Shown here piece by piece: positions 545 through 44,990 of a stretch of 64,000 bases of DNA. Location of the stretch: the NCBI GenBank assembly GCA_030674155.1, contig CM060325.1, positions 20,881,160 to 20,945,159 on the forward strand, read 5' to 3'. This stretch comes from Stramonita haemastoma. Lineage: Eukaryota > Mollusca > Gastropoda > Neogastropoda > Muricidae. The notes below the pieces were generated by a model. It made no database searches. It was not told the DNA's origin and saw only the letters and a program-made list of their open reading frames with translations. The translations under genes and the position numbers were made by a program. How positions within the stretch are numbered: the first letter of the stretch is position 1; every line of letters starts with the position of its first letter.

Positions 545-724
545 GGACTCTGCCGGGCCAGAGAAGCTCACTGTCAGTGGCAGAATGCTTCTGCAGTTGC
601 ATCTAATAGTAAAGGCACAGAAGCTGATTCCGATCAAGGTGTAAATATTTCTGGAATAAATTTTCTAAATTATAATGTAAACGGTCTTTTACCTAAAATT
701 GACAACAAAGATTTTGTTAGTTTT

Positions 725-3700
725 TTGCTGAGATTTGATATAATTTGTCTAACAGAAACTTTTGTTGCATCAGATATTGATTTCCCTATTTTTAGGGATT
801 ATGATATGTTTATTGCAGGGGCTAAAAAACTGTCCCATCAAGGCAGATATTCAGGAGGGGTGATTCTTTTGGTAAAAAAATCCATTGAGTCTTTTGTGGA
901 AAAAATTGAGATTGAATATGATAATACTATTGTTGTAAAGTTGCACAGAGATTTATTAGGTACTAACAAAGATATAATGCTGGTATGTACATATATTCCT
1001 CCTTGTGACTCTGTATTCTGGAAAACAAAACAAGGTGTGTATGGCATGGAAGATCTTGAACAGTGTTTGCTTGAGCTTCAAAGTTCATATGATGATTTTA
1101 ATTTGATGTTAACAGGGGATTTTAATGCTCGAACAGCTAGCAATAATTACAATCTAGGGGATGACTTTGATGATTTTGAAAATATGTATTCTTTCTCCAA
1201 TCTTCAATTGCCTAGAAAATCACATGATTCAGAAACAAATCTTTTTGGTAATCAGCTAATTGAGTTATGTAATATGTTTGACTGTGTTATTTTGAATGGA
1301 CTTTGCAATCCAGACTTTGATGGTAGTTATACATTTATAGCATCTTCTGGTTCAAGTACAGTAGACTATTTTATTGCCTCTCTGGAACTATTAGCATCTG
1401 TCCAAATACTTTCTTTGGTTGTGGATAGTTTAACAGAATCTGACCATCTTCCGGTTTGTATGAAGATAGAAACTGCTAACAATATTTCAGATAAGTTGCA
1501 CAATCAGTCATCTAAAAGTAAAGTATCTTATGACAAACTTATATGGAATGAGAATAGGAAAGATGACTTTCTTAATGCATTAAGCACTGTTGTCATAAAA
1601 AATAAATTTGCAATGGCCACAAGTACGATAGAAAATGATATAGAAGAGGCTTTAGTCATATTTGTTGAAAGTTTGAAAGAGGCTAGCATATGCATGTTGA
1701 AAAAGTTGTCTCAGCATAAAAGTAAAAAGAGTGAATGGTTTGATGAAGAATGTGCAGTTGCGAAGAAAGAAAGTAGATCAAAACTAAACAATTTCAGAAA
1801 AACCAGAAATGAAGAGGACAGACTAATTTATGTTGAGAAAAGGAAAATTTACAGAAGATTGCTAAAGACAAAAAAACAAGGTTACAGAAGACAGAAAGCG
1901 GAATCTTTAGCAAATAACATCTCAAATTCTTCACATTTCTGGAAAGATGTAAGGAGCATGGGTTGTGGTAATCGTACAGTAACTTACAACAATATTAATA
2001 CTGAAGATTGGTATAATCATTTCAAAAACGTTTTTCAGAACACTGATGATAACACGGAAGGTAATGATTTCAATATTGATTTAAAGGAAGGAACTGATCA
2101 TATTTTGAATCAAGATATATCTGAAACTGAAGTAACACAAGCAATTTTAAAGCTTAAAGTAGGAAAATCCAGTGGCATTGACAACATATCGGCTGAAATG
2201 TTGAAAAATGGTGGTAAAGCTGTTACAGAGTTTTTGGTAAAATTTTTCAACACTATTTTCACTTTAGGTATATATCCCAAAGACTGGTCAAAAGCCATAA
2301 TTATACCTATTTATAAGAAAGGAGATCCTAATATTACAGATAATTACAGAGGTGTGTCATTATTAAGTATCATTTCAAAATGCTATACAACTATATTAAA
2401 TGCAAGACTGTATAACTGGCTAGAAGACAATAATCTGATTTCTGAGAGTCAAGCAGGTTTCCGTAGGGGCTATTCAACAGTAGATCAAATATTTAATTTA
2501 TATGCAGTTGTTCAAAAATGTATGATGAAGAAACGCAGAAAATTGTATGTGGCATTTGTTGATTTTAAAAAAGCGTTTGATTCTGTACACCATGACAAAC
2601 TTCTTGAATGCATGAGAAACCAAGGTGTGAATGGAAAGTTTCTAGCCTCTTTAAAAGCAATGTATTTTTCTTTAGTCTCTTGCGTACGTGCAAATTGTGA
2701 ACTTTCTGAATATTTTGAATGCCCTATTGGTGTGAGACAAGGTTGTGTTTTAAGTCCGACTTTATTTTCTGTTTTCATTAATCAGCTTGCTGATCACATG
2801 AATGTGAAAGGAAGACATGGTATACAAGTTTTGCCTGATATTATGGAATTGTTTATTTTACTATTTGCAGATGATGTAGCTTTATTATCAACAACAGTAC
2901 ATGGCTTACAAAATCAATTAAATATCCTGCAGAGCTGTTGCAATGACATGAAATTAAATGTGAATGCTGAGAAAACAAAAGTGATGGTATTTAGAAAAGG
3001 GGGGTATTTAGGACAACATGAGCATTGGTCTTTTGGTGGTAAAAAATTAGAGGTTGTGAATAGTTACTGTTATTTGGGATTCCAATTTACTACAATGATA
3101 AGTATGAAAAGAGGTACCGAACGTTTAGCATCAAAGGGTAAGAAAGCAGTAGTCCAGTTAAATAAGGCTTTTCAAAAATACAAGGAAATGACTGCGAAAA
3201 CATATTTTAAGATTTTTGACGTTAAAGTTCAACCAGTTCTGCTGTATGCATCTGAAATATGGGGTTTAACTAAATTAGATCATATAGAAAAAGTTCATTG
3301 TATGGCTTGCAAGAGATTTTTAGGTGTCCCAGTTAGAACACCAAACTGCATGGTTTATGGTGATTTGGAAAGATTTCCTCTTCATGTTAATTCTTGTGTT
3401 TCAGTCTTAAGGTTTTGGTTTAGATTATTACAAATGAAAATTGAACGACTACCACATACAGCTTATCAGATGTTATTGGAATTGGACAAGGCAGGTAAAG
3501 ATTGTTGGGTGTCGAAAATTAGGGAAATTTTATGTGAGACAGGATTTAGTTTTGTTTGGCTGCAGCAGGGTGTTGGTCAGGTTAAAGTTTTTCTAAGGCT
3601 TTTTAAGCAGAGACTTGTTGATTTATACATACAAGAATGGTCCGGCACTATAAGACACCGTGACAGATATGATAACTACAGATCATTTAAAATAATTTTT

Positions 3701-4042
3701 GAAAAAGAAAAATATGTGTCTGACATGGATACCTACTGTTTTAGAGTTGCCATCTCACAGGTCAGGTTTAATGTTTTACCTATTAATGCAAATGTACATC
3801 GATATAGCAATATTCCTCAGAAGAGATCATGTCCATTGTGCAAATCAGTAAAGGAAGATGAACAGCACTTTTTGTTTGTATGTCCTGCATATTCTGATCT
3901 AAGAAATAAGTTTCTTGGGGATTTAGCTAGAACCCCAATCCACATGTTGTTACAAGTGTCCAATACCAAACAAATGCACGGTGTCTCAAGATATATTTTT
4001 CACTCAATGAACAAAAGGAAAAAAGAGTTGTCTGGAATCTAA
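725..4042 (+). CDS. Non-LTR retrotransposon endonuclease/reverse transcriptase
   Basis: This open frame encodes the enzymatic polyprotein of a LINE, which nicks target DNA and reverse-transcribes its own RNA. An APE-type endonuclease comes first: ICLTETF, SGGVILLVKK, LTGDFNART, a VDYFI block and ESDHLPV. The reverse transcriptase follows, with VDFKKAFDSV, GVRQGCVLSPTLF and the catalytic FADDVALLS. A C-terminal Cys/His cluster (CPLCK, then H and C) lies near residue 1060. The ATG at 725 is not the real start, because the conserved endonuclease motif YNVNGLLPK is encoded just upstream in the same frame (about 672-698). The frame is open back to base 2 apart from a TAG at 542-544. The family was not resolved (Jockey/CR1/L2-like are possible). 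It probably lies in an importin intron or just outside that gene. Confidence 0.93.
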   Translation: MLRFDIICLTETFVASDIDFPIFRDYDMFIAGAKKLSHQGRYSGGVILLVKKSIESFVEKIEIEYDNTIVVKLHRDLLGTNKDIMLVCTYIPPCDSVFWKTKQGVYGMEDLEQCLLELQSSYDDFNLMLTGDFNARTASNNYNLGDDFDDFENMYSFSNLQLPRKSHDSETNLFGNQLIELCNMFDCVILNGLCNPDFDGSYTFIASSGSSTVDYFIASLELLASVQILSLVVDSLTESDHLPVCMKIETANNISDKLHNQSSKSKVSYDKLIWNENRKDDFLNALSTVVIKNKFAMATSTIENDIEEALVIFVESLKEASICMLKKLSQHKSKKSEWFDEECAVAKKESRSKLNNFRKTRNEEDRLIYVEKRKIYRRLLKTKKQGYRRQKAESLANNISNSSHFWKDVRSMGCGNRTVTYNNINTEDWYNHFKNVFQNTDDNTEGNDFNIDLKEGTDHILNQDISETEVTQAILKLKVGKSSGIDNISAEMLKNGGKAVTEFLVKFFNTIFTLGIYPKDWSKAIIIPIYKKGDPNITDNYRGVSLLSIISKCYTTILNARLYNWLEDNNLISESQAGFRRGYSTVDQIFNLYAVVQKCMMKKRRKLYVAFVDFKKAFDSVHHDKLLECMRNQGVNGKFLASLKAMYFSLVSCVRANCELSEYFECPIGVRQGCVLSPTLFSVFINQLADHMNVKGRHGIQVLPDIMELFILLFADDVALLSTTVHGLQNQLNILQSCCNDMKLNVNAEKTKVMVFRKGGYLGQHEHWSFGGKKLEVVNSYCYLGFQFTTMISMKRGTERLASKGKKAVVQLNKAFQKYKEMTAKTYFKIFDVKVQPVLLYASEIWGLTKLDHIEKVHCMACKRFLGVPVRTPNCMVYGDLERFPLHVNSCVSVLRFWFRLLQMKIERLPHTAYQMLLELDKAGKDCWVSKIREILCETGFSFVWLQQGVGQVKVFLRLFKQRLVDLYIQEWSGTIRHRDRYDNYRSFKIIFEKEKYVSDMDTYCFRVAISQVRFNVLPINANVHRYSNIPQKRSCPLCKSVKEDEQHFLFVCPAYSDLRNKFLGDLARTPIHMLLQVSNTKQMHGVSRYIFHSMNKRKKELSGI

Positions 4043-6150: not shown

Positions 6151-25259
<19,109 letters not shown>

Positions 25260-28200
25260 ACAGGGAGGTACTGCTGCTGCTGCTGCTGCTGCACCGTTCA
25301 TTGCTTCATTCAGGAATTCAGCATCACACACACACACAGGAGGAAGGGAGGATACATGTGCATTGTCGGAGGAGATGGATGTGGAAAAGCGTTTTGAAGT
25401 TCGTTGTGGTTTGGGTTGTGGTCACTTCATTCAGCATGGAAGCATCTGTCTGACGGCAGGGGATAGGGTTAGGTTTTGTGGGTGACCACCTTTGCCAGAT
25501 TTGGAAGATTCTCTGTATCAAAACGAAGGATGGTATGTGTTAAGGTGACTGTGGTCTTCTTACGGTAAGGTGAAAGACTTGGGGTGGATTTTCTTGAACC
25601 AGGGTTCATGTTGATAAAGTAGACTAGAGGCTGGACTAAACAGGGAGAGGGGACTTTCTGGTTTTGGTTAACCACTGTGGTTAGGCAGAAGGGTTTGGGG
25701 TTTGGTTTGGGTTTTTTTTTGTCAGTTTATGTCTCAATTTTTTGGAGTTTTTTAATTAACAACAAAAAAGAAATTCAGTGTTGTGGAAGTCAAGTTTTTT
25801 TGGTTTTTTTTTTTTAAGTTAAAAAGAAACAATCTCCTGCCAGAATCTATCCCTGAACTATGCTTTGTGTGTGTGTTGTTTGACATCAAAAATAAATCCT
25901 CAACTGAGGCAGATTTTGAAACTTTTTTTCCCTGTCAGTTTTTGCCTTGGGACATTTTTGATGCCTGATGGTTTTGTGATGGTGCATGACTTTTGTCGTT
26001 GCTGTCATGACCGGTTGCCTTTTTTTTTTCTTTTCTTTCTTTCTTTTTCTTTCTGTCTGTCTTCTTGTGTGTTTGTGTGTTTCATTTTTTTGTAATGCGT
26101 GGTGCTTGGATTATTTCAGAACCACCTCCATGTTTTGGTCACGTGGAAAAACTTTTTCATTGTGTACACATCCATTTTGCCTTTTAATCTTGGGACAAAC
26201 ACTTCCAGACTGTCTTTCTTTGCCAGAGTTTGCCACGCTGGAAGAGTACTTAACAGATTCGCCATCCCAAAATTTTCTCGAATAAACTCAGACATGTATT
26301 TATTGACTGTTCTTGTATCACTTGTGAAATGTATGGGTGGTTTTAGTCATTTTTACAAAGATGATAGCAGTAGGTTTGACATTTTAAGAAATGGATACAT
26401 GTATGTTTGTTGCGCTACCATGTCACACACACAAAAAAATGAACTGTTGAAGAGAGAAAGTGTCAGTAATATAATTTGCTGTTTGATTTTCTGAATGCTA
26501 TGACCAGTTTTGACTTCAGTAGTGTGGTGACTGACTTGGTGCTAACAAAATGATAAAACTTGAATGATATTTACTGAAAGGTTGTGCACAAATCGGATTT
26601 TTTTACATACAAACCAAAACATAGAGGTAAAAAAAAAAACAGTGTTGAGAAATATCAAAAGCTATTTTTGAAAACTTCTTTTTTTTTTTTTTTTAAAGAA
26701 AGAAGAAGTAGTAGCTCAAGAACACTCAGAAACTTTTTTTTTCTCTCCTGTTTCCTGGGGTTCTAAGCATCTTGTATTCATGTTTGAGGTATCCTGGAAT
26801 GTTTTTTGGTTGAAAGAGCCTTAGATTTTGGGAAATTGTGTGTGTTTTTGTTTAAATCGGCTTAGAAGTAGAAAGCTACATTTGGGTTTGCACAGTTTGA
26901 GAAAGATGAGGAGCATTGCTGACACATAAAAAGGTCAGCAGAAAGTGGTATTGATTTTGGAAAACTCACAGTCAGAAAAGAACATCCAAAAGGTGAAATA
27001 TTCAAAAGTATAACAGAACAAAGACACAAGATTTAAAAAAATAATTGGTCAATGAATGAAAACACCAAGATGACCAATGTAAAATATAGAATTTTTGTAC
27101 TGCTCAGTAGAAAATGTAATTTGTAATATGATGAAATAAGGTTTATTTTCTTGTTCATATATATTGAGATCTTGGAAGATGATACCTCAGTTTAGAGCAA
27201 GTTTTCTGGAAAACAGTTTGTGTCAGTATGTTGGAATGGTATAGGTAACTTCTTGTTGTTCTTTGAAGTGAAGGCAACATGGCAAGTCTTAGCTTGAATG
27301 CTGTACCGATGTTTTGCACTAGTCAGTATTGCTATATGTAGTTACAGTTCCATATTCTCTAGTAAATTTTATACGCTTGTCAGTGAGACTTGCACAACAT
27401 GTACTGTTTATACAAGTTTCTCTAGGAATGGCAAGCCCCCAAAAGTGTGTTTAATGTGGAATATATAAGAAACTTAGACCAACATTGAAGGATTACACAT
27501 CGTGCTTTTAAACATCTGAGGCCTTTTTTGGTTGAAACTACTGCTTTACCAGTAGCTGCATCAAGTTTGAGTTTTTTCCTCATGTGGCATTTTGTTTTAA
27601 AACTGTTTTGGGAGCGGAAATTTGTTCTCCAAAACAGTGCTTTTATGTGTTTTCCATTTGACCCGTCATTTTCCTAAGCGCATGTTAACTAGTGTTACAG
27701 GGGTTCTGCGTGTGTTGCATGTATGGATTATGCTGTCATTTTGGGGGGGAATATTTTTAATCAGTGACCTTATTAGACATTGGAAAATAACAGCATGCAG
27801 AACCTTATGAATGCAATTATCATCCTTTATAAATAGATAAGACTCACTACACTCAAAATTTCAGATTATCTTCCAGTCTGTTTTTTCAAAACTTATGGAG
27901 GTTTATAAGGAGTTAAATTTTTAAGCTTTTCATACAGAGAATTGGTCAAGGAAAGGAGTCGAGGTATAAATTCTGTACTAAAGTACCGATTTGTAGTGTT
28001 GCATTTCATCCTGTCATTTTTCCAACTTCTTTCATTTTTAAAATATGCTGTAAAGGTGTGATGCTCCTGATTTTGTCCAGGTGTTTTTGAGATTATTTCT
28101 GAGAAGAAAAAACACTCCCATGTGGTGTCTGCTATATGAGTTTTTGTCAGGTCATGGAACACATTCTCTCTTTTAACATTGGATATTTTTTGGTTATGTG

Positions 28201-36723: not shown

Positions 36724-39700
36724 TCACAACTCCACAAATCGGTTGGTCTGTTCGTATCGCTTGTGTCTCAAGGCACATTCGTTCAGAGTGCTGGCAGTGA
36801 AGTCCACCTGGTTGGCAAAAGCGATGGCTTCGTCCCGTTTCCGACTGCGGTAGCCTCTGAGGACTGCGGTGTGAGGGTTGTCCTTGGCCTCAGGGTTGAA
36901 GGTCTTGTACTTGAACTCTCTGCGCGTGATGACGGGCAGGAGGCGACCTGTTGGAAGGGGGACAAGGTCGTTTCCCATGTCGTCCACAAAGTGAGGGTTG
37001 GCCAGACGAATGGCCACCACGTCCTTCAGGGATTGCTCTCGTGCTTCTTCCAAGTCGGTCACGATTCTGTGGGGATAGTTCTTGCCTGGAAAAACAAAAA
37101 AAAATTTACAGTTACAGGTTTTATTTACCGATAACAGAAACATTTTTGCTTGATTTTTATCTGTAATGGTTTTTTATTATTTGATGCTTGTTTCTAATAT
37201 TCAAATTTCTCCTTTTTGAGGGATGTTACTTTAGGTATATACATCTTTGACAGTTAACCCTCTTAGTCCTGATCCAGGATTTGCTGGGATTGAATAATTA
37301 CCTCCCCTAAGTCCGGATCTGGGATTTACACACAGTAGATGTCCATCATGCTGTGACCATCACTAATTGCTAGCACATGTTAAACCTCTATCAGGCTAGA
37401 AGGAGAAACCCTGTAGAGTGTCTGGAAGTAATTATAGCTGCTGGTATCAACTTAGAAGGAGGAAAAGGCCAGCAAGCATGTGTGCCTGACCTGATTTCAT
37501 GATGGAATGCAAAATCTAGAAGCAATTTGTGTTCAGAGAATCCGAATGCAAGAGGGCTAATCTAGCAATCTAGGGTTTTTGATTTAAAACAGAGGTAAAA
37601 CACTACCAAAAACTCAAATATCTATGAATTATGCATCCAGGGATGGGATAGCTCAGTGGGCAGAGCGCTCGCTTTCCCCAAGCCAAGTGTAACAGAGTGG
37701 ACATTGGCCCATGTGATGTCTCATCTCTGCACAGCTTATCGGGTGGGTACAGCTAGCCAGTTAGGACGTGACCTCTAAAAAGAGGTTGCATAAATTCTAC
37801 CGTTCACCATGAAGGCAAAGAGTATGCAATAGAGGGCTTTCGACCACCACCCAAGGAAACAGAGCATCGCACATTTCGCAGGTGTGTCCCAATTTAGTAA
37901 CACAACGCTGCTGCGACAGAGCTCTGATTGCATGGGAGGCAATCTACTTACCACCCCATCACATAAGGTTAGGCAGTATCGTGCATACCAGACAACATTC
38001 ATTTTTGTGACTCACCGAGCTCCACACCAGCCCTGCGCAGCACTGAGGGGGGACATTTCCAGGGTTTGTGGATGAAGTCGTCAGGCAGTTTGGATAACTC
38101 AGGGCACCACTGCCTCACGTACTGGCCCTTGGGGTCACAGGTCAGGGCGGCGTCGACGGGGTGCATGACGAAGTTCCACTGGTCCAGGCCACTCATGCCC
38201 CCGTTCTGCCACATCATGGCGTTGATGGCCACATCCGCATCCAGAAGCGTGTCCTGACAAACAGAGAAACACAGAGTGTGAAGGGGGACGGGATAGCCTA
38301 GTGGTCAGAACATTGCGCTCACAATTTGACTACTGAAAGCCAGTGCTTCTTACTAAATCTGTTACCTGATGAGAACGGAAAGCAGTGCAAGAAAATAAGA
38401 TAGTAACCTTTACCTAGTTTCAAAAGAAGTCCTCAGAAGCTTCAAAAAAAAAAGCAAGCGAGCACTATATTAGCCAAAAAAAGATAATAAGAGTTGCTTC
38501 ACAAACAAGAGAATTCCATTTTAAAAAAATAGTCATGTAGAAAAATATATTTGTATTTGAAAAAAAAATAATTTGTTTCTTTCTGTAAGAAAAAATGAAA
38601 TTTTCTTTTGAAATTAGTTCATCTCTGCATTTCTTTCCATCACCAAAATTTACCAAAAAAACCACCAAAAAACAAAACCCCTAACAAAACAAAACTGACC
38701 AGAATAAATAAGGATAAAACCAAGATATGGGTATACAAAGATTTTCTGGACAAATTTCTCATCTTTAAATGGCACACATGTCAAGTAAGTCTCTCAGATA
38801 AGACTAAAAACCGAGGTTCCCTGTGCTAACAAACGCACGCAGAACTTCTTTCACACGTGTTAAAACCCGCTCCACTTTTCGAAAGAGTAGGGCATTGTGT
38901 GCCGGTGGGAACAGATCGCAATTTTTTTTGGTTTAAACTGCATACACACAGGTATGGGATGTAACAAAAAAAAGCACATGAGTGCTTGTTCCATTATCCT
39001 CAAAATAAAATAAATTAAAAAAAAAAAAAATAATAATGATGATAAAGTCTCCATCTATCTCCAAATATCTGGAAATAACAGAAATTTTTAAAAATAACTA
39101 ATAATAAAAAAAATAATAATAATGATAAAGTCTCCCTCTCCCTCCAAGAATCTACCTGGAACCACTGGTAGCCGTGCACCCAGTGAAGGTGGAGGTAGGA
39201 GATGAGGAAGGAGGCCACCACGTGGCGGGTGTAGTTGTTCATCCACCCCGTCAGCCACAGTTGCCGCATGGCCGCATCCACCAAAGGGTACCCTGTCTGT
39301 CCCTTCTGCCAGGCTTTCAGGTCTGCTTTGCTGTCGCTCCACCGCTGATCCTGTCAGTTCAAACCATAACAGCTGTTATTTATTTATTTATTTACTTATT
39401 TATTCATTTATTTATTTATTTACTTATTTATTTATCTATTCTTTTATTTCAAGACAATACTGGAACCATTCGTATCGGTCTTTGCCTTTCTAATGGATAA
39501 TTCCAGTGGCATGGAGTGGGGGGGGTGTCTGTTGCATGGGTAACAGCTTGCCCTCCATACTTACTTACCCAGGCTTTGCGCTCTAAAGACTAGAGCGCAA
39601 CTCCATAGTCTTCCGAGACTGATGGGTGCCTACTACTGTTTCAAGAAAAATGGAATAAGCATTTTACATGTGGGAGTAGGCATCCGTCAGTCTCAGAAGG

Positions 39701-40493
39701 CTCTTGAGTGCAAAGCCTGGGTAAGTAAGTAAGTATGGAGAGCAAGCTGTTACCCACGCAGCAAAACCCTCGCCAGCACACCCCTCTCCAGGCCATAGAT
39801 TGCTGACTTCGTATATTAAGGGGTGATGAGATAGCGTAGTGGTTAGAAAATAGCGCTTGTAATCTGACGATCCAGGTTCAAATCCCATTCAAGGGGATAT
39901 TTTCCCCTGAAGTTAACATCAGTATCAACTTCACTCCCCCAAAAGTCCTTCAGATGAGACTATATACCAAGGCCCTGTGTGCGAACGCATGCAGAACATC
40001 TTAAGCACATGTTAAAACCTGTAGTGCTATTTATAAAAGAGTAGGCCACTGTGTGCCAGTGGGAACGGATGACAAAATTTACAAAACCATATACACACAG
40101 GGACTGGATGTAAAAAAAAAAGCATGAAGTGTTTATTCCATTATCCTCAATATAAAAGAATAAATAAATAAAATAAATATTATATGAACCTCCATCCCAA
40201 ACTGAGTCACAATGCACTGGTAGTCAATTTCTAATTGGTAACATATTAATATCCAATAAAAGGTTGTATGGCTTCAGGATTTTTTTGTTCCTCAGCTAGA
40301 GCTGTGAGGTTCACCAAAGGTGAGATTTTACATGTGACACCATTTTTGCCCACCATGGAGGTAGCTGCATTCCGACTTGGGGATAGATCACATGTTTGAT
40401 GCTCTAAACTATGCTATTCCACACCTGTAGACAGAACAAAAACCTGGGCTCATGTACGCACATGCGCACACACACACACACACATAGTGACAT

Positions 40494-40528
<35 letters not shown>

Positions 40529-42125
40529 ACACACTTACACACCTGATAGTGAACCCGGATAGGTTGGCTGGGCATGTCAGGGAACTTGGACAGGAGCCAG
40601 TAGGAGAGATCTCGCCAGGCAAACTTGCGCAGAAACTTGGGCGACCTCAGTCCTTGGGCATAGCGAAGGACTGCACGAGGACTGACCTGGCCGAAGTGGA
40701 GGTATGGGGACAGGTGACTTGTGTTGGGCATGTCCGCTCTGCCGGACTCTTTCTCGTAGTTTCGGATGCCTGCACAATGAAGCACCGTACTTGTTTATTT
40801 GTCTGTTGTGTTCGGCATGACATCCAAAAACAGAACAGGAGGCAGCTGCTGTTTCGGAAATTGGGCTGAATTTTGATTATAGTGGAGATACCTTACCCAC
40901 GCACAGCCCTACTCTCTCGCCAAGACGGCATAAGGATAGTCAGCCTTCAAGATGTTCTCCAAAGGCCAACTAGCCCCCAGGGCTGCAGCACATAAGGACT
41001 GTGCAAGTCAAGCCTCCTAGTCAGAGAGTCATAGTCGATCACCAAAGACTAAGCTGTACAGTAAGATTCCATGAGTAGGAAAGCCATTGATCATACAGCC
41101 TGTCACTTTGCTGTTGCCCCCAGTATCATGGTTTAATCAAGAACTGTGATAAAGCCTAGGCACTGAAGGCTAAGCACCATACTTACCTTTGGCTAATGCA
41201 ATTTGAATGTGGGGGATGGGATAGCCTTAGTGGTCAGAGTGGTGCGCTTGTGGATCTGCTGACCTAAGTTTGAATCTTGTTCATAAAGATTTTTTCTCTG
41301 CAGTTAACATCACTGCTGACTTGACTCCACTCCCCCTCCCTCCCGAAAGCGCTTAACCTTACTTCAAACAAAAGAAACAGCTTTTTTTTTAAATCTTTCA
41401 AATTCAAAGAGTTCACACTTAGATTAGTCCCTTTTTTTCGTGATAAAAAATTATTATTCTGTATCTTTAACTACCTACCACAAGCCTTGTCCAAACATAC
41501 ACTCAACTATTCATTTGACAGCCATCCCACTCTAATCCATTCAACTCTTCTCCACCCCCCCCACACACACACACATACGGAGTACAGAAACAGATAGAAG
41601 TTCTAAATCTGACTGGATTCACTTCCAAAATTATGGGAAAAAAAACACACACAAAAATCTACATAAGCAATAACAAAATAAAGAAAACAATTTATTAAAC
41701 TTGATCTGGTTTCCAAATTTCAATAGTATATATAGAGGCAAAGGCAAAGAGAATTACTGAAATAACATCTCTTGGGGTGTACATAGAAAGAAAAAAAAAA
41801 AGCAACTAATGATATACTGACCTCCATCCACAAAAGGTCAAGGGCTTTCCATGCACCATCTTCCGAAAAGTCCCAGCTTTCCCGAATGACTTTTGCCCAA
41901 TCAATCTGCAGCAGGCAATTATTGGATATTGATCAAACAAAATAATTTGATAAAAAAAAAAGAAAACCACAACACATAACAAAAACAAAAATTATTCTGT
42001 ACTAGTACATATATACTGGCTGCCTTCTTCGAATGGGTAGTCACATATTTTAAAAGAATACTCATTAAACAATCGTTTTAAATAAAACAAACCACAACAT
42101 ACAAACAACATTACTCACCCGCCCC

Positions 42126-42174
<49 letters not shown>

Positions 42175-43865
42175 CACACACACACACACACACACACACA
42201 CATTCACATGCAAATGCATGAACAACTCAAACTGCAGAACACAGCCTTTTTACACAACAAGCAAATCAAGGCTTAAGTGTTTCATATAAAACATTCAATA
42301 CAAAATGATCAACATGGGAACATAAACCATCATTTTCTGAAACCATTTTCAGCAAACACCACACATAAAAAAAAGAAAACACATATATCATACAAAAACC
42401 TTCCACAGCAGTTATACCCGATGATTTCATAATCCTTCACTTACGATCGTGCCATCACGGCGCCTTGGCAATCTGGCAAGCTCCAGTTCTTCCAGAGGCT
42501 GACTGTGGGGTATGGTCCCACAGGTGGGCAGGCATGCTGGCTTCTCCACTGGGAAACCGATGGACTGTGTTGTGGGGGACAGTCGGCAACATTGCATGAA
42601 AATGAAGCACGGACCCAAACCCCCTGTAGCCTTTGGACTCAATGTTGACCGAGCTAGGCTCATGCAGAAGATAGGAGTCGAAGCGTTTGACAGCCACTCC
42701 TGCAATACAAAATATGATAAACCTTCTGAAATAACATAGAAATGAAACAAGCATGACCCTTATAAATAAATAAAGTATGTGTTTAAGATTACTAAACATT
42801 AAACTAAAATTATTTTTTCTTTCTCATTTTTATTTGACAAAGTGGTATTTTGTTTAATTCTTTTATTTATTCTTTTAAATTGAAGATAATGGAATAGTCA
42901 CTCATGTGCTTTTTTACATCCAGTCCCTGTGTGTATGCTGGTTTGTCAATGTTTTTCATCCATTCCCACTGGCACACAATGGCCTACTCTTCCAAAAAGT
43001 GGAACAGGTTTTCACATGTGCGCGCGCAAGATGTTCTGCATGTGTTCACACACAGGGCCTCAGTTCATATAGTCTCAAGCGTTAAAGATTACTTCAAGTT
43101 AAACAAAAGTTATGAACTTATTTCCATTCTTGTTTTCATTTGACAGAGTGGCGTTTTGTTCAGTATGGGTCTAGTAAGCTTCAATTTCAAGTCAGCAGGA
43201 GGAAAGACAGGGTTTCATGATTTTCACACCTATTTCACAGTTATGATAATTTAGTGTTCTTGTTATGTTCACTAGGCTGGCATACTCCTGCATGAGATGT
43301 TTGAGGCTCTAAATCTTACTCTGGCTGTCTCTTTCAAGTGGGTAGCACAAAGTTTCTTTGTATTTTGCCTTAAAAAAAAGATTATTAAAAAAAAGCCAGT
43401 GTCTTGTTAGTTTTTCTTATCATTTAAGTAGGTTTTCCTAACCACATTGCTGGTTTGGTGACCCCCAAATACTTAGCAAGAACTATCACTAAAAATACAA
43501 CTGAAGTATCAGTATGGAGATGACATATAGCTTCTATGAACGACAGTGAGGCTGTACACAATTATTTCCATACTGAAAAGATGTAATTTCCCAGCATCTG
43601 TTCTCATTGAATTTAAGATTTTGAAGATATCATATAGCATAGGTTATACATGGTCTGTTACTTATAGTACTATACAATTCGTAGAAAACAGTGTCACTGG
43701 TTGACAACAGTGTCACCAGCAAACAGGTCACTGTGACAAAATAAGTTGCTCTTTGATCATGAATATACTGAAGTAACTGATACTACCAGAGAAAAGCCTG
43801 AAAAATACTGGGCTGATCACACAAAGAAACATAATTTTATAAGTATGCATACAGTTGATGTGTCA

Positions 43866-43946
<81 letters not shown>

Positions 43947-44990
43947 CATTGGTAAATGTATGTTATATATAAATATGCTCCCATTATGAGATAAATTTAT
44001 GCTTACCTTGTGATATCAATGAAGCACTGATCTGATCATCTCTCTTCTTCAGACACGGTTCATACAGGTTGTTCAGAACAACGGTCCCAGCTCCTACCTC
44101 TGTCACCAGCGATTTGATTTCCTTTTGACTGTTTTCAACTTTACGAAACAGTATTCTGTTGCTATATTCATTTTGAAGTGAACTATTCAGCTCATTCAAA
44201 GCAAAATGCAACCAATACTTCGTTGCCCCTCCAGCTGCGAGTGGTCCTTCTTCTTTTTCGTTCCAGAGAAATGCCAAAAGAACAGGGGCGTTCTCTTCAA
44301 AGGCGGCGACCAACGCTGGATTATCATGCAGTCTTAAGTCTCTCCTCAGCCAGTATATCACAGGCTTGTTGTAAATGTGTCGTGCTGGCCCTTGCTGTTT
44401 CTGTTGTGCTCTTTTCTTTTTCTTCTTTCGTTTGACATTTCACTATGTGGAACATTATTCGACACCACAGAAGGGTTTTGCCGGGTATCTTGTCTTGGAC
44501 TTGAAGTGCATGACTCTGATTTGACACACAACTGCTGTACTGACCCACGTGTTTTCACATCGCTTGCTTTGAGTTTGCTAGCATACGATGACGACGGACT
44601 TCCACCATCAGAAACAGGGTATGGTTGTGAAGCAGACGACGCGTTGCATGTAGCAGACGATACTTTTTGTTCGCTGCTGGACAAAGCCAGAGCAAACTCT
44701 AAGTCAAGTTCCTCCCCAAAACTTTCAGTATCACATGGTTCGTTTGACTGCTCGTGAACGACGCTGTACAATGCAAAATACCCACTATACATGTTACTCA
44801 GCTCTTGAAACAGGGTTGTCTTCAGGGGACATTGTTGCTGTGCGATCCTCAAGAGCTGATGGAAATCGCTCTTCGTCTTCTCTTCGCCAAGCAGGGAAAG
44901 AATCATACAGAAACATTCATCAGACGACAATTTCCCTGTCGAAAACTGCCCCAGGATGTTAAGCGTATCTTCGGTGTTTTCACTAGCCAT
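36724..44990 (-). CDS. Photolyase/cryptochrome-family flavoprotein with N-terminal extension
   Basis: Family members bind FAD and either repair UV-damaged DNA or sense blue light; which applies here is not decided. Exons on the minus strand: 44990-44007, 42699-42445, 41905-41822, 40769-40543, 39350-39156, 38253-38016 and 37085-36724 (TGA). All junctions are GT-AG. The antenna domain starts near residue 209 (VIYWLRRDLRLHDNPAL). FAD-domain blocks follow: HLSPYLHFGQVSPR, FAWRDLSYWLL, TGYPLVDAAMRQL, GWMNNYTRHVVASFL, LDADVAINAMMWQNGGMSG, YVRQWCPEL and IHKPWKCPPSVLRRAG. Length is about 780 residues, longer than typical photolyases (450-550) because of a 200-residue leader and a C-terminal tail of about 110. 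NGGMSGLDQW differs from the commonest CPD, 6-4 and DASH versions. Three 1-nt frameshifts occur (about 44404-44440, 42598 and 41828). It diverges from HERPUD2 across 680 bp. Confidence 0.9.
37258..37556. mobile_element. TTAA-type short MITE, copy 1 (299 bp)
   Basis: It starts CCCTCTTAGTCCTGAT and ends ATGCAAGAGGG. It is flanked by TTAA (37254-37257) and CTAA (37557-37560, one change from TTAA). It is homologous along its length to 63153-63465 (GGAAGTAATTATAGCTGCTG, AGAAGGAGGAAAAGGCCAGC, GCATGTGTGCCTGACCTGAT). It lies in the last photolyase intron. Confidence 0.85.
37641..37692 (+). mobile_element. SINE-like family C head fragment
   Basis: GGGATGGGATAGCTCAGTGG, then GCAGAGCGCTCGCTTTCCCC, matches the start of 16652-16895. 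The rest of the family is absent. Confidence 0.65.
38283..38329 (+). mobile_element. SINE family A head fragment
   Basis: GGGACGGGATAGCCTAGTGG, then TCAGAACATTGCGCTC, matches the 5' head of 48141-48480. Confidence 0.7.
38782..39040 (+). mobile_element. SINE family A, 5'-truncated
   Basis: It carries AAAACCGAGGTTCCCTGTG, GAGTAGGGCATTGTGTGCCG, GTGGGAACAGATC and TCCATTATCCTCAAAATAA, then an A-rich tail. Confidence 0.85.
39361..39440. repeat. (TTTA)n low-complexity tract
   Basis: TTTATTTAT repeats just upstream (in transcription) of the photolyase exon 5 acceptor. Confidence 0.85.
39511..39800. repeat. Foldback repeat with about 100-bp arms
   Basis: The left arm (39511-39633: TGGGTAACAGCTTGCCCTCC, ATACTTACTTACCCAGGCTT) and the right arm (39676-39800: AAGCCTGGGTAAGTAAGTAA, GAGAGCAAGCTGTTACCCA) are near reverse complements separated by about 42 bp. 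It lies in a photolyase intron. Confidence 0.85.
39822..40175 (+). mobile_element. SINE family A, full length
   Basis: It has a head TGATGAGATAGCGTAGTGG, B box-like GGTTCAAATCCC, the AGTTAACATCAGTATC body, GGGACTGGATGTAAAAA and a (AATA)n tail. Confidence 0.88.
40450..40535. repeat. (CA)n microsatellite next to photolyase exon 4
   Basis: CA runs end about 8 bp from the exon 4 donor (40542-40541). Confidence 0.9.
40775..41820. other. Photolyase intron 3
   Basis: It contains a 3'-truncated family A SINE (41211-41351: GGGGATGGGATAGCC, GCAGTTAACATCACTGCTGA). The rest is unassigned. Confidence 0.6.
41211..41351 (+). mobile_element. SINE family A, 3'-truncated
   Basis: The head and first 130 bp of family A are present; the sequence breaks off after CTCCCGAAAGCGC. 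Confidence 0.78.
42127..42202. repeat. (CA)n microsatellite
   Basis: A nearly pure CA run in photolyase intron 2. Confidence 0.93.
42445..42699 (-). CDS. Photolyase exon 2 with one extra base
   Basis: It opens GVAVKRFDSYLLHEPS and continues KGYRGFGSVLHF. The next family-like reading, MQCCRLSP through LEELELARLPRRRDGTI, is one frame over. One base too many near 42596-42602 (in CATTTTCATG on the coding strand) explains the switch. The donor GTAAGT and the phase into exon 3 (IDWAKVIRESWDFSEDG) fit the second frame. Confidence 0.8.
42854..43082 (-). mobile_element. SINE family A, 5'-truncated
   Basis: The reverse complement carries GAGACTATATGAACTGAGGC, GGCCATTGTGTGCCAGTGGG, GGGACTGGATGTAAAAAAGC and an A-rich tail. 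Confidence 0.84.
43083..44006. other. Photolyase intron 1, remainder
   Basis: Unassigned AT-rich sequence with a (CA)n run at 43868-43945. Confidence 0.6.
44364..44990 (-). CDS. N-terminal extension of the photolyase-like protein, with UIM
   Basis: It starts at ATG 44990-44988 (MASENTEDTL). Residues 1-80 look like a compact helical domain with no assigned family (LSSDECFCMILSLLGEE, FHQLLRIAQQQCPL). Residues 93-107, EELDLEFALALSSSE (44714-44670), match the ubiquitin-interacting motif L-x-x-A-L-x-x-S-x-x-E with a preceding acidic pair. A Ser-rich linker and a Lys/Arg-rich stretch, nuclear-signal-like in either frame, precede the photolyase domain. The frame as written stops at a TGA just as the photolyase frame reads KPVIYWL, so one base is missing or extra in the A/G-rich run (about 44404-44440). 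Confidence 0.75.

What the first reader, a model, noticed from the sequence alone, without database searches (positions are those of the whole stretch)
44670..44990. A photolyase/cryptochrome with a UIM-bearing N-terminal extension
Residues 93-107 of the predicted protein (EELDLEFALALSSSE) fit the ubiquitin-interacting motif L-x-x-A-L-x-x-S-x-x-E exactly, with acidic residues in front. Animal CRY proteins are controlled by ubiquitination, and DNA repair uses ubiquitin scaffolds, but I know of no photolyase-family enzyme carrying a UIM. The first 80 residues also look like a folded, unassigned domain. This could be a repair enzyme recruited to ubiquitinated chromatin, or a photoreceptor reading ubiquitin. 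The domain link itself crosses a probable 1-nt sequence error.
Basis: partly seen in the sequence, partly recalled or inferred. Interest (0 to 1): 0.82.

Follow-up and report, generated by a model that had tools for sequence, protein, structure and literature searches.

The report
Snail cryptochrome-6 with ubiquitin-binding motif
The window holds a sea-snail copy of cryptochrome 6, a light-sensor-like protein whose N-terminal tail carries a ubiquitin-binding motif; the combination is real and old, but it was already described in frogs and fish.

Summary
On the minus strand an ORF from 44990 reads a compact N-terminal stretch and, at residues 93-107, a full ubiquitin-interacting motif (UIM), ahead of a cryptochrome/photolyase core. 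The gene has seven exons (44990-36724). Three single-base frame changes in homopolymer runs look like assembly errors: a neighbouring importin-4-like exon also changes frame by one base, and 0 of 184 near-invariant core columns are altered. The tail-core link is supported: Babylonia areolata has both in one annotated 787-aa protein, and 116 of 122 proteins (window included) carry the tail. The UIM core is kept at the aligned columns in 105 of those 116.

The claim that no photolyase-family protein has a UIM is wrong. This is CRY6 (PCRY-like). Okano et al. 2023 described the same tail in Xenopus CRY6 and showed polyubiquitin binding; an extended N-terminus was reported for oyster in 2017. The core lacks two residues used by CPD photolyases, so a ubiquitin-reading photoreceptor is likelier than a repair enzyme; that is inference. 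New here: a snail member, and the spread of the tail, which fits one early animal origin.

The parts
36724..44990 (-). CRY6 / PCRY-like gene, seven coding exons, ~781 aa when read through three frame changes
   Evidence: 78% identity to Babylonia P0001
44007..44990 (-). exon 1: N-terminal extension plus start of photolyase homology region
   Evidence: ORFs in two frames; donor site found; Pfam DNA_photolyase E 5.2e-24 for the second part
44748..44981 (-). predicted four-helix N-terminal domain, residues 4-81
   Evidence: AlphaFold2, pLDDT mostly above 90
44670..44714 (-). ubiquitin-interacting motif EELDLEFALALSSSE, residues 93-107
   Evidence: pattern; at aligned columns core in 105 of 116, with acidic +3 in 97 of 116, window included
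44433..44669 (-). poorly conserved linker, residues 108-186; includes SSYASKL (134-140), also seen in several relatives
   Evidence: the corresponding stretch of the Babylonia model is disordered
44391..44432 (-). Lys/Arg-rich patch (NLS/NoLS-like) and site of the first frame change (one base short in an A-rich run; stretch starts at 44429)
42445..42699 (-). exon 2; second frame change in a stretch starting at 42607 (T run one base long)
41822..41905 (-). exon 3; third frame change in a stretch starting at 41842 (T run one base short)
40543..40769 (-). exon 4; contains WRDLSY and the Lys aligned with the CPD-contact Glu
39156..39350 (-). exon 5
38016..38253 (-). exon 6; contains MWQNGG, the PCRY-like signature, and the Asn at the FAD N5 site
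   Evidence: motif from PMC9498864
36724..37085 (-). exon 7 and stop codon

Best explanation
This is a gastropod orthologue of cryptochrome 6 (CRY6, also called PCRY-like): a cryptochrome core carrying, through a long flexible linker, a four-helix domain and a UIM helix. Most likely it works as a light-responsive adaptor that binds (poly)ubiquitinated proteins through the UIM; light absorbed by the core would change the protein's binding or location, and the basic patch may send it to the nucleus or nucleolus. Shown here: gene anatomy, family membership, conservation of the UIM and of the tail-core link. Shown by others in frog: the motif binds polyubiquitin. Inferred: FAD binding and light sensing in this protein, and any coupling of light to ubiquitin binding. 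The confidence given is for identity as CRY6 with a real UIM; for the light-responsive adaptor mechanism I would say about 0.5.
For: P0019 is named cryptochrome-6 of Xenopus tropicalis (51% identity over 830 columns); the other listed relatives are mostly photolyase-like or uncharacterised proteins of molluscs, amphibians and fish. Babylonia joins tail and core in one model. MWQNxG is in 120 of 122 proteins, window included (motif). UIM core at aligned columns in 105 of 116. Mean identity to the window is 54% in residues 95-107 against 10-12% in the linkers beside it, 26% in the helical domain and 62% in the core. The core scores best with 4u63 and plant CRYs in the PDB. Trp-triad positions kept. 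Frog motif binds K48 polyubiquitin in GST pull-down (PMC11520951). Fugu Cry6 is light-induced in one group with Xpc, Neil1, Hells and photolyase genes (PMC5394683).
Against: No RNA evidence for this gene. The assembly breaks the frame three times. Six of 122 models have less than 100 aa of extension, among them the closest relative by core, Nucella P0003, and Littorina P0004; a short isoform is not excluded. Eleven of 116 lack the UIM core at the aligned columns; four unnamed ones (P0058, P0106, P0110, P0119) keep a helical domain without a proper UIM. Of 11 mollusc-like rows all have the core but only 6 have the acidic residue at exactly +3 without a gap. Pfam UIM does not score the window. 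In the full-length Babylonia model the UIM region is low-confidence (pLDDT below 50 for 82-96 and 104-106). Frog GFP-CRY6 was cytoplasmic although its basic patch alone went to the nucleolus. Nothing seen ties light to ubiquitin binding.
Confidence: 0.9

Rival explanations
1. A DNA-repair photolyase recruited by its UIM to ubiquitinated chromatin at UV damage.
For: Best PDB match is a photolyase, 4u63 (class III CPD photolyase, recalled), then plant CRYs; Asn at the FAD N5 site as in 4u63, where plant CRY1 has Asp in the same alignments; Trp-triad kept; fish Cry6 is co-induced with repair genes.
Against: The residue aligned with the CPD-contact Glu is Lys in the window and in 119 of 120 relatives; the second Trp of WQW is Asn in the window and 119 of 119; at the N5 site 80 of 120 relatives have Asp. 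Residue roles are recalled from E. coli photolyase. Frog full-length protein was cytoplasmic.
Confidence: 0.15
2. Two neighbouring genes: the N-terminal ORF is its own transcript and the core starts separately.
For: Frame change at the link; gene models without the extension in Nucella, Littorina, Ruditapes, P0029, P0034 and Batillaria P0042.
Against: 116 of 122 proteins (window included) carry both parts; the frog cDNA was cloned with primers in the untranslated regions and encodes both; a profile of the extension found no protein of stand-alone size (0.55 to 1.75 times 189 aa) at E<=1 among 4154 candidates; in the window the core frame has stop codons just upstream and no early ATG.
Confidence: 0.04
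3. A decaying pseudogene.
For: Three frame changes in ~2.3 kb of coding sequence.
Against: All three lie in homopolymer runs; splice sites intact; 0 of 184 core columns conserved at >=98% in the other proteins are changed; an importin-4-like exon in the same window changes frame by one base near 20075; only one match to the extension in the whole assembly. A whole-genome search for other copies of the core did not complete.
Confidence: 0.05
4. The UIM match is a chance run of acidic and aliphatic residues.
For: 1.67% of shuffles of the window's extension give a match; no Pfam hit in the window; the 32-residue piece matches nothing in the PDB.
Against: Core at the aligned columns in 105 of 116; shuffles of the 116 extensions give a mean of 2.0 strict matches against 98; of five weak PDB hits of the extension profile, four are UIM proteins, partly by recall.
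Confidence: 0.02

Closest known systems
Xenopus tropicalis CRY6 (Okano et al. 2023, PMC11520951)
   Same: N-terminal extension of ~200 aa with four-helix domain, UIM and basic patch, then plant-CRY-like core
   Different: Snail extension is shorter (204 against 225 aa) and lacks the EPED segment of the frog; the acidic residue of the second, shifted UIM is Lys in the snail; frog protein is longer overall (862 against ~781 aa)
Oyster CgPCRY (Perrigault and Tran 2017, PMC5224872)
   Same: Mollusc member; extended N-terminal fragment was noted by the authors
   Different: UIM and helical domain not mentioned in the passages seen; the word ubiquitin does not occur in the main text
Babylonia areolata 'deoxyribodipyrimidine photo-lyase-like' (P0001)
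   Same: 78% identity over the whole protein, tail included
   Different: Database entry under a photolyase name; frames intact
Hrs, ataxin-3, ZFAND2B and a VWFA protein (Rpn10, recalled): UIM proteins
   Same: chains of these are four of the five weak profile hits; the fifth, VPS18, is not a UIM protein to my knowledge
   Different: No photolyase core; other architectures
Platynereis L-Cry (PDB 8p4x, identification recalled)
   Same: Cryptochrome fold
   Different: Scores 137 bits against 313 for 4u63 and 264-272 for plant CRYs: a different branch

Membership tests
CRY6 / PCRY-like | MWQNxG signature (100 of 103 PCRY-like, none of the other sequences, PMC9498864) | tested here: met
   MWQNGG in exon 6; 120 of 122 proteins, window included (motif)
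CRY6 / PCRY-like | WRDLAY (83%) and VGLR (74%) motifs; not universal in the family | tested here: inconclusive
   Both absent as such: window has WRDLSY, one residue off, and no VGLR; 100 and 101 of 122 have them exactly
CRY6 / PCRY-like | core nearest to plant CRY / class III CPD branch | tested here: met
   top hits 4u63 and plant CRYs; no tree was built
CRY6 / PCRY-like | ~200-aa N-terminal extension with four-helix domain | tested here: met
   (fold predicted)
CRY6 / PCRY-like | UIM in the extension (UIM1) | tested here: met
CRY6 / PCRY-like | second shifted UIM and inverted UIM (DI-UIM) | tested here: inconclusive
   Read by eye: shifted UIM has F99, A102, S106 but Lys at 109; inverted UIM not tested
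CRY6 / PCRY-like | nuclear/nucleolar basic patch | tested here: inconclusive
   Up to 6 K/R in 10 residues, but the patch spans the frame change
Ubiquitin-interacting motif (PF02809) | Pfam profile score | tested here: inconclusive
   No hit in the window; 5 of 20 members of A3 hit, best E 0.004
Ubiquitin-interacting motif (PF02809) | binds ubiquitin | not testable with these tools
   shown for the frog motif only (PMC11520951)
CPD photolyase | CPD-contact Glu (E274 in E. coli, recalled) | tested here: not met
   Lys in the window and 119 of 120 relatives
CPD photolyase | second Trp of WQW (W384, recalled) | tested here: not met
   Asn in the window and 119 of 119
CPD photolyase | Trp triad and Asn at FAD N5 site | tested here: met
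   N5-site Asn in the window and 39 of 120 relatives, Asp in 80, Leu in 1
KaiA/RbsU-like fold | four-helix right-handed superhelix related to KaiA/RbsU | tested here: inconclusive

The most novel reading that the evidence does not exclude
CRY6 is an ancient animal light-switched ubiquitin reader: tail and core were joined once, before molluscs and vertebrates split, and light-driven flavin reduction in the core changes what the tethered UIM can bind. The shared tail would also argue against the proposed repeated horizontal transfer of PCRY-like genes into animals.
Probability: 0.3. Interest if true: 0.65.

Novelty: new member of a known kind. Interest (0 to 1): 0.27.

Why it matters
It removes a claim of first discovery and places the gene in a published but little-studied family. 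What it adds is evolutionary: a UIM that stays recognisable from snails to frogs and fish, between linkers that vary almost freely, was probably under selection, so ubiquitin binding is likely part of what CRY6 does rather than a frog peculiarity. The shared extension also bears on whether animals received this gene once or many times.

Tried and rejected

Limits of the counts: 122 sequences are the window, P0002 and the 120 rows listed out of 1026 hits. In alignment A2, used for the window's structure model, part of the window's linker was aligned with core columns, so that model says little about residues beyond ~110; the statement that the linker is disordered rests on the Babylonia model.

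Full report
What is there. On the minus strand an ORF opens with ATG at 44990 and reads MASENTED... through EELDLEFALALSSSE at residues 93-107. A second frame of the same exon reads a photolyase N-terminal domain (Pfam DNA_photolyase, E 5.2e-24). Seven exons with GT-AG sites run from 44990 to a stop at 36724. Read through, they give about 781 aa. Three single-base frame changes lie in exon 1 (A-rich run, stretch from 44429), exon 2 (T run, from 42607) and exon 3 (T run, from 41842).

Error or pseudogene. All three changes are in homopolymer runs. The core differs from its relatives at 0 of 184 columns that are at least 98% conserved among the other proteins. In the same window, an ORF that matches importin-4 in the PDB up to about 20075 (E 6.5e-8) continues in another frame with a segment that by eye resembles the importin sequence that follows. 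The extension has one match in the 2.17-Gb assembly, this one; the same search with the whole protein did not complete. Assembly error is the simplest reading; raw reads or cDNA were not available.

One protein or two. A search with residues 1-215 found two proteins, among them a 787-aa protein of the snail Babylonia areolata with the whole extension (46% identity) joined to the core; over the full length identity is 78%. A wider search listed the best 120 of 1026 proteins. With P0002 and the window that makes 122; 116 have an extension of 100 aa or more. The six others are Nucella P0003, Littorina P0004, Ruditapes P0015, P0029, P0034 and Batillaria P0042. The closest relative by core, Nucella (90.5% over 581 columns), is among those without it, so model truncation or a short isoform is open. 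No protein of stand-alone size with the extension appeared. The host is probably a neogastropod: this is inferred from Nucella and Babylonia being nearest.

Is the UIM more than chance. Alone, the window's motif would arise in 1.67% of shuffles of its extension. Across the 116, window included, the strict pattern is found in 98 against 2.0 on average and at most 6 in 200 shuffles. At the aligned columns the core residues are present in 105 of 116, and with the acidic +3 residue in 97, one of them through a gap. All 11 rows that I grouped as mollusc-like (nine named, P0002 and P0010 unnamed) have the core; 6 of the 11 have the acid at exactly +3. Mean identity to the window is 54% in residues 95-107, 10-12% in the linkers beside it, 26% in the helical domain and 62% in the core. 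A profile of 20 extensions gave five weak PDB hits: a VWFA protein (E 0.023; Rpn10, recalled), VPS18, ataxin-3, the Hrs UIM and ZFAND2B; all but VPS18 are UIM proteins, partly by recall. Against: Pfam's UIM model scores 5 of 20 members and not the window. Eleven of 116 lack the core: six change only the Ala (P0014, P0041, P0043, P0054, P0076, P0113), P0070 starts after it, and P0058, P0106, P0110 and P0119 have a helical domain but no proper UIM (P0106 and P0110 have a degenerate stretch aligned there).

Structure. Residues 4-81 are predicted as four helices with pLDDT mostly above 90, and 92-108 as a helix at about 75. In the full-length Babylonia model the helical bundle and the core are folded, residues 108-208 are below pLDDT 50, and so are 82-96 and 104-106, so the UIM itself is low-confidence there. 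PDB fold searches were not informative.

What it is. The PCRY-like signature MWQNxG (PMC9498864, passages) is in 120 of 122 proteins, window included. P0019 is named cryptochrome-6 of Xenopus tropicalis. The paper on that protein (PMC11520951; abstract, introduction, start of the methods, results and discussion read, figures and supplements not) describes the extension as four-helix domain, overlapping UIMs and NLS/NoLS, shows polyubiquitin binding by GST pull-down, and reports the extension in other CRY6 proteins and the UIMs in Takifugu and zebrafish. The oyster orthologue was reported with an extended N-terminal fragment in 2017 (PMC5224872, passages). PCRY-like genes were recorded in most bivalves, Trochidae and Conidae (PMC10733189, passages). 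So the finding is a rediscovery in a new species.

Function. Against 4u63 (class III photolyase, recalled) the CPD-contact Glu aligns with Lys, and the second Trp of WQW with Asn; in the family these are Lys in 119 of 120 and Asn in 119 of 119 others. The Trp triad is kept. The N5-site residue is Asn in the window and 39 of 120 others, Asp in 80, Leu in 1. The residue roles and E. coli numbering are recalled. Fugu Cry6 is light-induced in one group with DNA-damage and photolyase genes (PMC5394683; abstract, one section and passages), which keeps a UV-response role open. I therefore favour a light-responsive ubiquitin-binding adaptor over a repair enzyme; light control of ubiquitin binding is inference.

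Evolution. PMC9498864 suggests horizontal transfer of PCRY-like genes into animals, while PMC10733189 argues for vertical descent and loss. The same extension in molluscs, a hemichordate (P0014, taxon recalled), amphibians and fish fits one joining before these lineages split. Algal proteins were not examined, so this is support, not proof.

Noticed in passing
window 545-4042 (+): Uninterrupted 1165-aa non-LTR retrotransposon-like ORF with endonuclease and reverse transcriptase domains.
   Followed up: partly
window ~7400-25500 (+): Importin-4-like gene: one ORF (19583-20188) matches importin-4 in the PDB and changes frame by one base near 20075; the other exons are my reading and had no Pfam hit where tried.
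   Followed up: partly
window 45671 (+): Divergent neighbour starting 681 bp from the CRY6 ATG; its first exon looks to me like HERPUD (ubiquitin-like ER protein), a recalled resemblance with no Pfam hit.
   Followed up: no
residues 134-140 (44571-44591, -): SSYASKL after the UIM recurs as S/T-Y/F-A in relatives (55 of 109 by a loose pattern without a shuffled control); a possible second short binding motif.
   Followed up: partly
P0058, P0106, P0110, P0119: Unnamed relatives with a helical domain but no proper UIM; P0058 and P0119 share an EPED segment with amphibians.
   Followed up: partly
literature: The name Cry6 is used for two different families: Drosophila-type CRY (PMC4350181, PMC7553075) and plant-like CRY (PMC11520951).
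   Followed up: yes
window ~8278-9871: Stretch in which several frames read repeated units such as INQQGFQHH and ISKVFNIT, probably a tandem array (ORF list; no repeat finder run).
   Followed up: no
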